Source: an uncultured Bacteroidales bacterium (GTDB lineage Bacteria > Bacteroidota > Bacteroidia > Bacteroidales > Bacteroidaceae). Taken from it: DNA of 41,627 bases. The stretch's first letter is position 1. Each line of letters opens with the position of its first letter. Of this stretch, positions 3,952 through 7,222 are shown in pieces. The stretch lies in contig CACXEH010000042.1 in NCBI GenBank assembly GCA_902766625.1, positions 1-41,627 on the forward strand. The letters run 5' to 3'. The notes below the pieces were generated by a model. That model was not told the DNA's origin. It ran no database searches and worked only from the letters and a program-made list of their open reading frames with translations. The translations under genes were made by a program, and so were the position numbers.

Positions 3952-4932
3952 ATGACAAAAGCAAAACCCTTTATCAAGTGGGTTGGAGGAAAGAGCCAAC
4001 TTATCGAACAACTGGATGCACAGCTTCCAGCTGACTTTGATAATTGGGAAAATGTTACATACATAGAACCCTTTGTAGGCGGTGGAGCAATGCTTTTCTA
4101 TATGCTTCAGCGTTATCCTAATATTCAACATGCAATTATCAATGATATTAATTCAGATTTGACAACATGTTATCGAACTGTCAGAGATGCACCTGAACAA
4201 CTGATCGAATCGTTGAAGGAAATTGAGAAAAACTATTTAGCTCTTGAAAGTGAGGAAAGGCGAAAGGAATTCTATATGGTAACACGTGATCAATACAATG
4301 AGAAGGATCTTGATCCAATCAAAAATACAACACTTTTTTTCTTCTTAAATAGGACATGTTTTAATGGCCTTTATCGTGTAAACAAAAAAGGATTGTTCAA
4401 TGTACCCTTTGGGAGATATATAAATCCAACAATTTGTGATCCCGAGACGATAAGGAAAGATAGTAAATTGTTGCAACATGTCGAAATTCTGAATAACGAT
4501 TTTGAAGACACATACAGATATGCTCATGGCAATACACTTTTCTATTTTGACCCTCCGTATCGCCCGTTAAGTAACACCTCAAGTTTCAATGATTATGCAA
4601 AGGAAGCTTTCAATGACGAAGCCCAGATACGTCTGAAGGAGTTTTGTGACCGCATAAATGAGGCTGGCTTTCACTTCATGCTAAGTAATTCTGATTGTAA
4701 AAGCAAGAATGAAGAGGACATTTTTTTTGATATATTGTACCAAGCATATCAGATAGAGCGTGTATGGGCATCAAGAAGTATTAATTCAAAACCTGACAAG
4801 CGTGGAAAGTTGACTGAGATTCTAGTACATAATTACAAAGCAACAAAGGATGCTCCTCGTGCTAAATATCATTCAGTTGAATTAGAACCATTGTATGTCG
4901 CAGAAAAGACTCATGATTATTCAGTTAACTAG
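3952..4932 (+). CDS. dpnM: DNA adenine methyltransferase, Dam/DpnM type (alpha class)
   Basis: A 326-residue N6-adenine methyltransferase expected to methylate A in GATC and protect the host from the DpnII-like nuclease encoded next. The order of motifs is that of the alpha class: KWVGGKSQL near residue 9, EPFVGGGA at 39-46 (S-adenosylmethionine site) and DPPY at 200-203 (catalytic motif). The length is somewhat above Dam of E. coli and close to other restriction-linked members, with a lysine-rich tail. The ATG is the first in frame after a leader of about 150 bases. It heads a four-gene operon (this gene, the nuclease, a second nuclease-like gene and a second methylase). The operon is much more AT-rich than the flanking alpha-galactosidase, consistent with transfer. 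GATC specificity is inferred from the family and the partner genes. Confidence 0.92.
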   Translation: MTKAKPFIKWVGGKSQLIEQLDAQLPADFDNWENVTYIEPFVGGGAMLFYMLQRYPNIQHAIINDINSDLTTCYRTVRDAPEQLIESLKEIEKNYLALESEERRKEFYMVTRDQYNEKDLDPIKNTTLFFFLNRTCFNGLYRVNKKGLFNVPFGRYINPTICDPETIRKDSKLLQHVEILNNDFEDTYRYAHGNTLFYFDPPYRPLSNTSSFNDYAKEAFNDEAQIRLKEFCDRINEAGFHFMLSNSDCKSKNEEDIFFDILYQAYQIERVWASRSINSKPDKRGKLTEILVHNYKATKDAPRAKYHSVELEPLYVAEKTHDYSVN

Positions 4933-4958
4933 ATAAACCTATACGATACAATTAAATA

Positions 4959-4972
4959 TGGCGATTTCGCCA
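4959..4972. promoter_or_regulatory. Perfect dyad between methylase and nuclease genes
   Basis: TGGCGATTTCGCCA is a perfect inverted repeat (6-base arms around TT) in the 53-base gap before the nuclease start at 4986. An overlapping 11-codon reading frame (ATG 4958 to TAA 4993) runs across the nuclease start codon. It could be an operator or a translational control hairpin, but no function is shown by sequence alone. Confidence 0.35.
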
Positions 4973-4985
4973 CACTACAGGATGC

Positions 4986-5807
4986 ATGGCTAAAGATTTT
5001 AACAAGTTTATGTCTCAACTTCAAGAGACGAATCAGACATTAGATTTCTTCTGTGATTTTGATAAGATTTCGGAAAACGTAGATAATATCAAATTAAGCC
5101 TATGTATGCTAAATAGTTTGATAGGAACAACTGATTTGCGAAAAAGTGTTGAGGTTATCTGGAACAGAGACAGAACTGCATTTAGTGTTATAGATATCCT
5201 AATTGCAGTAAGAAGTGAAGGTAAAAAAAAGATTTTGAATTCAGACGGGCAAAGCATTATTCTTGACAAATTATTCACCAGCGTTGATGGCGTAATTGAA
5301 TACCTTGAAGGAACAGGACTTGCAGATATATTTCGTCAAAGAAAGATTGGAGATTTAGTTGATTACGTTTATGGTATTGAAACTGGTCTTGACAGTAATG
5401 CAAGGAAAAATCGTAGTGGCCATGTTATGGAGGAAATGGTCGCAAGCATTTTTGATAATAATGATATAGAATATCGTCAAGAGGTTTATTCAAGTGAATG
5501 GCCAGAGATTACAAAAGTTCTTGGTGACGATGAGAAACGCTTCGACTTTGTGATCTCAACAGAGCATATAACATATCTAATTGAAGTAAATTTCTATAGC
5601 AGCGGAGGTTCTAAACTCAATGAGATAGCGCGTTCATATTCTGATATTGCACCAAAGATCAATTCAGTATCAGGTTTTGAGTTTGTTTGGATTACCGATG
5701 GTATTGGTTGGAAAAGTGCAAGGAATAAGCTTCAAGAAGCTTATAATATTATTCCAAAAATATATAATTTATCGGACATAACACATTTCATAAATTCATT
5801 AAAATAA
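4986..5807 (+). CDS. dpnB: Type II restriction endonuclease, DpnII/MboI family (GATC)
   Basis: A 273-residue protein that reads as a DpnII/MboI-family endonuclease cutting unmethylated GATC. The family-typical block GIETGLDSNARKNRSG lies at about 130-145. The nuclease core follows: RFDFVI with D187, then YLIEVNFYSSGGSKLNE with E200, where the usual lysine of PD-(D/E)XK is replaced by asparagine, as I recall for this family. Length is close to that of DpnII. ATG 4986 is chosen because the protein pattern starts there; no strong ribosome-binding purine stretch precedes it, and the upstream ATG at 4982 is out of frame and stops at once. The order methylase then nuclease ensures protection first. 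The next gene starts 6 bases after its stop. Confidence 0.92.
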   Translation: MAKDFNKFMSQLQETNQTLDFFCDFDKISENVDNIKLSLCMLNSLIGTTDLRKSVEVIWNRDRTAFSVIDILIAVRSEGKKKILNSDGQSIILDKLFTSVDGVIEYLEGTGLADIFRQRKIGDLVDYVYGIETGLDSNARKNRSGHVMEEMVASIFDNNDIEYRQEVYSSEWPEITKVLGDDEKRFDFVISTEHITYLIEVNFYSSGGSKLNEIARSYSDIAPKINSVSGFEFVWITDGIGWKSARNKLQEAYNIIPKIYNLSDITHFINSLK

Positions 5808-5813
5808 TTGAAT

Positions 5814-6347
5814 ATGAAAAAAGGTGGAACAGGTGGCGGCAACACCATTACGGGTTTGAAATATGAAGCAAAAGTTGATTTAGGTAAATTTTTAAATGAA
5901 CAAGACGGTTATGAGGTGGTAGGTGTTGAAGTGTATTATAATCATGAACATGTAGCGAACTTGTTTAAAAAGCATGGACTTTATAAATATTTGAGCGATA
6001 AGGGAGTTGATTGGAAAAAACATATATCTTCCCAACTTCTCCCTGATAATTGTATCTATGTTATCGTTAATAATACGGTTTTTATAATTGAAGTTAAACA
6101 TCAACAAATAGGAGGAAGTGTTGACGAAAAATTACAGACATGTGATTTCAAAAAGAAACAATATACAAAATTATTTGCTGAATTAAATTATAAAGTTGAG
6201 TATATATACATTCTTGATGATTGGTTTAAGGCTGATAAATATAAGGATGTTAGAGATTATATAATTAGTGTTGGATGTCATTACTATTATAATTACATTC
6301 CTCTTCAAGAATTGGGTTTACCTGTACCTGCAAACAATAAAAAATGA
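5814..6347 (+). CDS. Small PD-(D/E)XK nuclease-like protein inside the DpnII operon
   Basis: A 177-residue protein from ATG 5814 (a TTG at 5808 is in frame but touches the previous stop and is unlikely as the start). I do not recognise the exact family. It begins with the glycine-rich GGTGGGNTITGLKYE and carries a PD-(D/E)XK nuclease signature: PDN with D78, then FIIEVK with E93 and K95, the two acidic residues 15 apart. It continues with GGSVDEKLQT and a region ending near PVPANNKK. These features suggest a small restriction endonuclease or nicking nuclease. Its stop codon overlaps the next start as ATGA, so it is translationally coupled to the DpnA-like methylase. It is very AT-rich (13 G+C in 6181-6240). 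A standard DpnII operon has no such gene, so it may be a second enzyme, an accessory nuclease or a remnant. Confidence 0.8.
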   Translation: MKKGGTGGGNTITGLKYEAKVDLGKFLNEQDGYEVVGVEVYYNHEHVANLFKKHGLYKYLSDKGVDWKKHISSQLLPDNCIYVIVNNTVFIIEVKHQQIGGSVDEKLQTCDFKKKQYTKLFAELNYKVEYIYILDDWFKADKYKDVRDYIISVGCHYYYNYIPLQELGLPVPANNKK

Positions 6348-7222
6348 TTTTATCATACTATAAATCTCCTAATAAAGATTTTACACTAATTCAGGGTGAT
6401 TGTGTAGGTATTTTGTCAAAATTCAAATTTGGTTTTGACATGATTTTTGCCGATCCTCCATATTTTTTGTCAAGTGGTGGCATTTCGTATCAGAGTGGCC
6501 AAGTAGTTTGCGTAGATAAAGGAAAATGGGATAAGCCTTCAACCACAGAAGAAATGGACGCTTTTAATCTAAAATGGCTTTCTGCATGCAAGGAGCACAT
6601 GAAGGATAATGCGACTATCTGGATTTCAGGAACACATCACAATATTTTCAGTGTTCAGCAACAACTTTTGAAATTAGGTTTCAAAATACTGAATGTGATT
6701 ACATGGGCTAAGACCAATCCGCCACCCAATATTTCATGCCGATATTTTACCTACTCTACCGAGTTCATTATCTGGGCAAGAAAGTCACAAAAAGTTGCTC
6801 ACTATTATAACTATAACTTAATGAAAAAGCTCAACGGAAATAAGCAAATGACTGATGTATGGCAACTTCCTGCCATAGGCCGTTGGGAAAAATCATGTGG
6901 CAAACATCCGACGCAAAAACCATTGGGAGTGTTGGCGAGATTGATTCAAGCCAGCACACGGCCTGGGGCATGGATTCTTGACCCGTTCAGTGGAAGTGCT
7001 ACAACTGGTATAGCCGCCAATCTATTAGGCAGACGCTACCTCGGTTTAGAGATGGAAAAAGAGTTTTTGTTTATGGGCAAAGCCCGAAGAGAAGAAATAG
7101 AGAATAGTGCTGTACGTAGCAACTATTTGGAACGATTAGTCAAAGCAAAGATTGTCCTGCCTTCTGACAATTACTTTGTGACAGACGATATGGAAACATG
7201 CTATAACGTTCCTTGGTTCTGA
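6344..7222 (+). CDS. dpnA: DNA adenine methyltransferase, DpnA type (beta class)
   Basis: A 292-residue beta-class N6-adenine methyltransferase: the catalytic DPPY comes first (37-40) and the cofactor motif DPFSGSATT later (213-221). The stretches GGISYQSGQVVCVDKGKWDK, SCRYFTYSTE and KHPTQKP agree closely with what I recall of DpnA, the second methylase of the DpnII system. DpnA is known to methylate GATC also in single-stranded DNA, which protects incoming transforming or conjugating DNA. The start ATG overlaps the stop of the preceding nuclease-like gene (ATGA). It is the last gene of the operon, followed by a hairpin at 7265-7306. It is less AT-rich than its immediate neighbour, so the operon may have been assembled from parts. 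Confidence 0.9.
   Translation: MILSYYKSPNKDFTLIQGDCVGILSKFKFGFDMIFADPPYFLSSGGISYQSGQVVCVDKGKWDKPSTTEEMDAFNLKWLSACKEHMKDNATIWISGTHHNIFSVQQQLLKLGFKILNVITWAKTNPPPNISCRYFTYSTEFIIWARKSQKVAHYYNYNLMKKLNGNKQMTDVWQLPAIGRWEKSCGKHPTQKPLGVLARLIQASTRPGAWILDPFSGSATTGIAANLLGRRYLGLEMEKEFLFMGKARREEIENSAVRSNYLERLVKAKIVLPSDNYFVTDDMETCYNVPWF

What the first reader, a model, noticed from the sequence alone, without database searches (positions are those of the whole stretch)
5814..6347. Extra PD-(D/E)XK nuclease-like gene inside a DpnII-type operon
The classic DpnII system has two methylases (DpnM, DpnA) and one nuclease (DpnB). Here a fourth gene is inserted between nuclease and DpnA, with an intact P77-D78...E93-V94-K95 signature and GGSVDEKL, and its stop overlaps the DpnA-like start as ATGA. 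It may be a second restriction enzyme with its own specificity, a nuclease protected by the DpnA-like methylase, or an accessory factor for single-stranded incoming DNA.
Basis: partly seen in the sequence, partly recalled or inferred. Interest (0 to 1): 0.65.

Follow-up and report, generated by a model that had tools for sequence, protein, structure and literature searches.

The report
Second restriction nuclease in DpnII operon
A bacterial DNA-cutting defence operon of the well-known DpnII type carries a second, unrelated nuclease gene that in most other genomes is the only nuclease beside the same DNA-methylating enzymes, so this cell probably has two different enzymes cutting the same DNA site (probably GATC).

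Summary
A 177-codon gene (X, 5814-6347) lies between an intact DpnII-family nuclease and a DpnA-like methylase, with P77-D78...E93-V94-K95 and an ATGA overlap. These residues are invariant in 61 relatives from many phyla, and X scores weakly but consistently as a PD-(D/E)XK nuclease.

X is not an extra found only in DpnII operons. In 98 loci with X, 66 of 68 with full context carry an adjacent DNA methylase and 44 of 68 lack DpnII. Of 50 genomes whose X locus lacks DpnII, 49 have no DpnII gene anywhere. X occurs with a DpnM-like methylase alone, a DpnA-like methylase alone, or both. It therefore behaves as a stand-alone Type II restriction enzyme that replaces DpnII in many relatives and accompanies it here.

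GATC is the most likely target, inferred from its partners. X is not homologous to DpnII at a detectable level.

Not shown: cleavage, specificity, and any benefit of having two nucleases. GATC-avoidance statistics were inconclusive. The accessory-factor and single-strand-nuclease readings are disfavoured.

The parts
3952..4932 (+). D12-class adenine methylase, DpnM/Dam family (M1), 326 aa
   Evidence: Pfam MethyltransfD12 E 9.3e-60, NCBIfam dam TIGR00571 E 1.8e-81; best solved relative is DpnM, 2dpm, E 4.8e-52; 39% identical to LlaDCHI M1
4986..5807 (+). DpnII/MboI-family restriction nuclease (R), 273 aa, with D187...E200-x-N202 intact
   Evidence: Pfam DpnII E 3.2e-99; motif invariant in a 16-sequence alignment
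5814..6347 (+). X: small PD-(D/E)XK nuclease, predicted second Type II restriction enzyme, 177 aa
   Evidence: 281 relatives; 61/61 aligned homologues hit PDDEXK_11; neighbourhood census; AlphaFold2 model pLDDT 81
6042..6047 (+). P77-D78 of X, first acidic residue of the predicted active site
   Evidence: invariant in 61 of 61 homologues
6090..6098 (+). E93-V94-K95 of X, the E-x-K of the predicted active site; Q97 follows
   Evidence: E93, K95 and Q97 invariant in 61 of 61 homologues
6111..6134 (+). GGSVDEKL of X, start of the most conserved block (GSVDEKLQTCDFKKKQY)
6344..7222 (+). N6_N4 (beta-class) adenine methylase, DpnA-like (M2), 292 aa; start overlaps the stop of X as ATGA
   Evidence: Pfam N6_N4_Mtase E 2.6e-55; 54% identical to LlaDCHI M2 (GATC system) and 42% to CcrM (GANTC)

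Best explanation
X is a stand-alone Type IIP restriction endonuclease of the PD-(D/E)XK superfamily. It cleaves double-stranded DNA at the unmethylated site that the neighbouring adenine methylases protect, most likely GATC. In many genomes it is the sole nuclease of a GATC-type restriction-modification operon. In this genome it sits in one operon with a second, unrelated nuclease (DpnII family), so two non-homologous enzymes share the same two protecting methylases. Shown: gene, conservation, methylase association, interchangeability with DpnII. Inferred: nuclease activity, GATC specificity, that both nucleases are active here, and any benefit (back-up, or different sensitivity to phage DNA modifications).
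For: Invariant PD...E-x-K-x-Q in 61 homologues; all 61 hit Pfam PDDEXK_11, best E 1.2e-8. Methylase next to X in 66 of 68 full-context loci; architectures (98 loci) include D-X-M (24), D-R-X-M (22), M-X or X-M (24), D-X, D-X-T and others. 44 of 68 full-context loci have no DpnII, and 49 of 50 genomes whose X locus lacks DpnII have no DpnII gene anywhere. In 393 Bacteroidales genomes DpnII was found in 33, strong full-length or near-full-length X in 8, and both in only 2. On the M2 tree R changes state at least 8 times and X at least 7 times, so they are gained or lost repeatedly beside the same methylase. GATC inference: M1's nearest solved relative is DpnM, M2 is 54% identical to LlaDCHI M2, and X replaces the GATC enzyme DpnII. 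In P. intermedia a methylase paired with a MboI-like nuclease was shown to make Gm6ATC (PMC5608340). Foldseek best viral matches of X include a Bathycoccus virus protein (E 8e-10, 24% identity); the giant-virus enzyme mel_015/R.Mis1I is a proven GATC nuclease related to R.CviAI and of prokaryotic origin (PMC7253447, PMC10734518).
Against: No cleavage data. The window protein itself is below Pfam's curated cut-off (20.1 vs 23.7 bits), and no PDB match reaches E 0.001 by sequence or fold. GATC avoidance did not separate X+ from X- genomes convincingly (Bacteroidales medians 0.39 vs 0.54, p 0.06; Alphaproteobacteria p 0.27), and the sampled MX genomes showed only mild depletion (0.52, 0.67). CcrM (GANTC) falls near the methylases of the M-X pairs with uncertain placement. 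R.CviAI and R.Mis1I sequences could not be compared directly.
Confidence: 0.72

Rival explanations
1. X is a true restriction enzyme but with a different recognition site (for example GANTC, a longer site containing GATC, or an unrelated site), protected specifically by the DpnA-like methylase, so the window holds two nested restriction-modification systems.
For: 24 loci have only a beta-class methylase with X. That methylase class also contains CcrM (GANTC), 42% identical to M2, and the tree does not exclude CcrM from the neighbourhood of the M-X methylases.
Against: X also occurs with a DpnM-like methylase and no DpnA-like gene (L079, L086; D-X-T in L034, L053, L069, L081). GANTC was not depleted in the X+ genomes with strongest GATC depletion (G494 1.09, G510 0.96, G496 1.06). 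A longer site containing GATC would still be protected by GATC methylases and is not excluded.
Confidence: 0.17
2. X is an accessory factor of DpnII or of DNA uptake (heterodimer partner, single-strand or hemimethylated-DNA nuclease) rather than an independent restriction enzyme.
For: It is co-operonic with DpnII and the DpnA-like gene in 22 loci. DpnA of S. pneumoniae is known to protect incoming single-stranded transforming DNA (PMC3573125, listed).
Against: 44 of 68 full-context X loci and 49 of 50 tested X genomes have no DpnII. X is found on phage contigs next to a methylase (L086, L145, L148).
Confidence: 0.07
3. X in this operon is redundant and decaying, a transitional state between a DpnII operon and an X operon, with no current activity.
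For: In other four-gene loci one partner is broken: R is disrupted in L036 while X is intact, and X has a stop in L041 while R is intact. Only 2 of 393 Bacteroidales genomes hold both.
Against: In the window both nucleases are full length with all invariant residues and tightly packed in frame with short or overlapping junctions.
Confidence: 0.04

Closest known systems
DpnII / MboI / LlaDCHI restriction-modification system (two methylases plus PF04556 nuclease)
   Same: The same two methylase types and a DpnII-family nuclease are present and intact; M2 is 54% identical to LlaDCHI M2.
   Different: A fourth gene, X, is present; gene order is D12, R, X, M2 instead of D12, M2, R as in LlaDCHI; X is not detectably homologous to the DpnII nuclease (hhalign probability 6.9%).
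R.CviAI (PBCV-1 A579L) and R.Mis1I (melbournevirus mel_015), GATC nucleases of giant viruses
   Same: Small nuclease beside a Dam-like adenine methylase; mel_015 lacked recognisable motifs in domain searches and was judged of prokaryotic origin (PMC7248222, PMC7253447); X's best viral fold matches include a giant algal virus protein at 24% identity.
   Different: Family identity is not verified, because neither sequence was available here; X occurs in operons with two or three methylases and sometimes a second nuclease.
Pfam PF20472 PDDEXK_11
   Same: All 61 homologues match around the E-x-K motif.
   Different: The window protein scores 20.1 bits against a cut-off of 23.7 and only 23 of its residues align.
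BbvCI-type two-subunit restriction enzymes (from memory)
   Same: Two nuclease genes in one system.
   Different: X and DpnII each occur alone with the same methylases, so they are not obligate subunits of one enzyme.

Membership tests
PD-(D/E)XK nuclease superfamily | Conserved D ... (D/E)-x-K active-site residues | tested here: met
   P77, D78, E93 and K95 invariant in 61 homologues; D, E, K and the following Q also kept in 17 more divergent viral and bacterial sequences
PD-(D/E)XK nuclease superfamily | Profile match above the curated cut-off, or clear fold match to a solved member | tested here: inconclusive
   PDDEXK_11 20.1 bits vs cut-off 23.7 for the window protein, though all 61 homologues match it. 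Model pLDDT 81. Best PDB fold hits, several of them PD-(D/E)XK enzymes such as BstEII, reach only E 5e-3 to 1e-2
Type II restriction endonuclease | Gene linked to a DNA methylase that can protect the site | tested here: met
   66 of 68 full-context loci
Type II restriction endonuclease | Can be the sole nuclease of its system | tested here: met
   49 of 50 genomes whose X locus lacks DpnII have no DpnII gene; other nuclease families in those genomes were not searched
Type II restriction endonuclease | Site-specific double-strand cleavage blocked by the cognate methylation | not testable with these tools
   Needs an enzyme assay; GATC avoidance statistics were inconclusive
DpnII nuclease family (PF04556) | Match to the DpnII profile | tested here: not met
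   No PF04556 hit for X; hhalign of X and DpnII alignments gives probability 6.9%
R.CviAI / R.Mis1I GATC nuclease family | Direct sequence similarity to A579L or mel_015 | not testable with these tools
   Neither sequence is in the collections at hand. The only support is fold similarity to giant-virus proteins and the published statement of prokaryotic homologues
Classical DpnII restriction-modification operon | DpnM-like and DpnA-like methylases plus DpnII nuclease | tested here: met
Classical DpnII restriction-modification operon | Exactly three genes, one nuclease | tested here: not met
   A fourth gene with nuclease motifs is present

The most novel reading that the evidence does not exclude
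A stacked restriction operon: two evolutionarily unrelated GATC nucleases, both active, share one pair of methylases, so that a phage modification or inhibitor that defeats one (for example a cytosine modification inside GATC, or a protein inhibitor) is still met by the other. X would also be an unrecognised nuclease for operons now listed as orphan GATC methylases.
Probability: 0.35. Interest if true: 0.62.

Novelty: new variant of a known kind. Interest (0 to 1): 0.5.

Why it matters
X is a widespread nuclease family (281 relatives from one scan of species genomes, several phyla including reduced-genome Patescibacteria) that NCBIfam and PADLOC do not name and Pfam catches only weakly. Recognising it would turn sets of 'orphan' GATC methylases into complete restriction-modification systems. 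One candidate is Prevotella intermedia 17F, where two GATC-assigned methylases called orphan are separated by 867 nt, room for X, although I could not check that sequence. The four-gene operon would also offer a natural test of why a cell keeps two enzymes for one site, and would give a bacterial counterpart to giant-virus GATC nucleases if the CviAI link holds.

Tried and rejected
1) Sequence search of the PDB with X and with its profile: only chance-level hits. 2) Common origin of X with DpnII: rejected at the sensitivity available. 3) Viral contig L086 as a giant virus linking X to CviAI: its neighbouring genes did not look like a giant virus, so it was dropped as a link; it looks like a large phage (my reading of the proteins). 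4) Second fold model (viral homologue, pLDDT 69) to find a named CviAI-family protein: same unnamed accessions at the top, no resolution. 5) Scan of viral contigs for D12 methylases to find CviAI-like pairs: only weak X-like ORFs, down to E 0.001-0.01, in L299, L327 and L337. 6) GATC avoidance as a specificity test: GATC ranks first or second lowest of 16 palindromes in pooled X loci, but controls without X or DpnII are often depleted as well, so it was not used as proof. The p-values were computed from values copied after that script stopped on the last group. 7) Tree of M2 to settle GATC versus GANTC: CcrM sits on a long branch with uncertain place. 8) Cap-snatching endonuclease hits (TIGR04202 in 4 of 61 members; arenavirus folds in Foldseek): taken as shared nuclease fold, not kinship.

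Full report
What is there. The window holds a four-gene block on the + strand: a D12 methylase (3952-4932), a DpnII-family nuclease (4986-5807), gene X (5814-6347) and an N6_N4 methylase (6344-7222). X begins 6 nt after the nuclease stop and its own stop overlaps the next start as ATGA. All four genes are intact. The nuclease keeps D187, E200 and N202 of its family. X keeps P77, D78, E93, K95 and Q97, invariant in 61 homologues.

What X is by sequence and model. The window protein matches Pfam PDDEXK_11 weakly (E 5.6e-4, below the curated cut-off), but all 61 homologues match the same family, the best at 1.2e-8. NCBIfam and PADLOC give no family for the window protein; only marginal hits appear among its homologues. 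An AlphaFold2 model from the 61-sequence alignment has mean pLDDT 81. Its fold hits in the PDB are modest (E 5e-3 and worse) and include PD-(D/E)XK enzymes such as BstEII. X and DpnII are not detectably homologous, so this is not a duplication.

How X is distributed. One scan of species genomes gave 281 relatives, with 80 loci kept. Adding loci from whole-genome and viral searches gives 98 loci with X. Writing D for the D12 methylase, R for DpnII, M for the DpnA-like methylase and T for a third methylase type, the commonest arrangements are D-X-M (24), D-R-X-M (22), M-X (17), X-M (7) and D-X-T (4). Of 68 loci with full context, 66 have a methylase and 44 have no R. Fifty genomes whose X locus lacks R were searched whole for DpnII: one had it. 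In 393 Bacteroidales genomes, R was found in 33, X strongly in 8 and both in 2, one of them the window's genome. On the M tree, R changes state at least 8 times and X at least 7. The two nucleases therefore come and go beside the same methylases.

How it most likely works. The simplest reading is that X is the nuclease of a complete Type II system in most places, and a second nuclease here. Its site must be one that any of its partner methylases can protect. It pairs with DpnM-like methylases without a DpnA-like gene (L079; the phage contig L086; D-X-T loci) and with DpnA-like methylases without a DpnM-like gene (M-X loci). The common target of those two methylase types in characterised systems is GATC: M1's nearest solved relative is DpnM, and M2 is 54% identical to the second methylase of LlaDCHI, a GATC system (my knowledge for the LlaDCHI site). 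A related case is P. intermedia, where the methylase beside a MboI-like nuclease was shown to make Gm6ATC (PMC5608340). A methylation-requiring enzyme such as DpnI is unlikely, because it would cut the host (inference).

Tests that did not decide. GATC is the lowest or second-lowest of 16 palindromic tetramers in every class of X locus pooled, including the window (observed/expected 0.41). Controls weaken this. Bacteroidales genomes without either nuclease have a median of 0.54, X-only genomes 0.39 (p 0.06) and DpnII genomes 0.26 (p 0.003); in one alphaproteobacterial family two of three X genomes are near zero, but so are six of nineteen without X. The samples are 10-100 kb per genome, and relatedness between genomes is not corrected for. 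The M tree leaves room for a GANTC-type enzyme near the M-X methylases. GATC therefore remains an inference.

Relation to known enzymes. PBCV-1 encodes a GATC system, M.CviAI (A581R) with A579L (PMC7248222). Melbournevirus mel_015 resembles R.CviAI, showed no recognisable domain, is placed among prokaryotic homologues (PMC7253447) and was proven to be a GATC nuclease, R.Mis1I (PMC10734518). X's best viral fold match is a protein of a Bathycoccus virus, a giant algal virus (E 8e-10, 24% identity). That makes X a plausible bacterial relative of R.CviAI, but I could not align them, so I do not file it there. REBASE was not available, and it may already list such genes as predicted nucleases.

Verdict on novelty. 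The gene is a new or unrecognised member of small PD-(D/E)XK restriction enzymes, and the arrangement with two unrelated nucleases under one methylase pair is a variant of the DpnII operon that I did not find described in the papers searched. The result that would raise interest is evidence that both nucleases are active and differ in what they tolerate.

Noticed in passing
L104, L122, L123 and L106, L120, L124, between the DpnII gene and the DpnA-like gene: In Bacteroidales DpnII operons without X the same position often holds another single gene of 174-185 aa (at least two unrelated-looking groups, no Pfam hit); in L105 an AIPR gene and in L115, L119 and L121 DndB/DGQHR-like or similar genes follow the nuclease. 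The junction looks like a cargo slot.
   Followed up: partly
L087 (NZ_CP119140.1 6092-16485), about 4153-5376: Neisseria gonorrhoeae record carries a decayed methylase-X pair: the methylase has in-frame stops and X a frameshift.
   Followed up: no
L025 1240-2733 and L082 2-1504: The D12 methylase upstream of X carries an extra C-terminal region of about 170 residues with no Pfam match, where other operons have DpnII.
   Followed up: no
L058 5464-5907: A 147-aa ORF without a Pfam match lies between the methylase and X.
   Followed up: no
L079 2660-3523: A CAP12/Pycsar-type TIR gene directly follows the D12-X pair, suggesting a defence island.
   Followed up: no
L086/L139, contig of 264,637 bases: A large phage-like contig encodes X (40% identical) directly followed by a D12 methylase, a phage-borne restriction-modification pair.
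   Followed up: partly
   Followed up: no
L299 1996-2499, L327 1950-2456, L337 3348-3920: Small ORFs next to D12 methylases on viral contigs share the K-x-Q-x-V-x-G-(S/T)-x-x-EK motif of X at borderline scores; perhaps a wider family of small phage nucleases.
   Followed up: no
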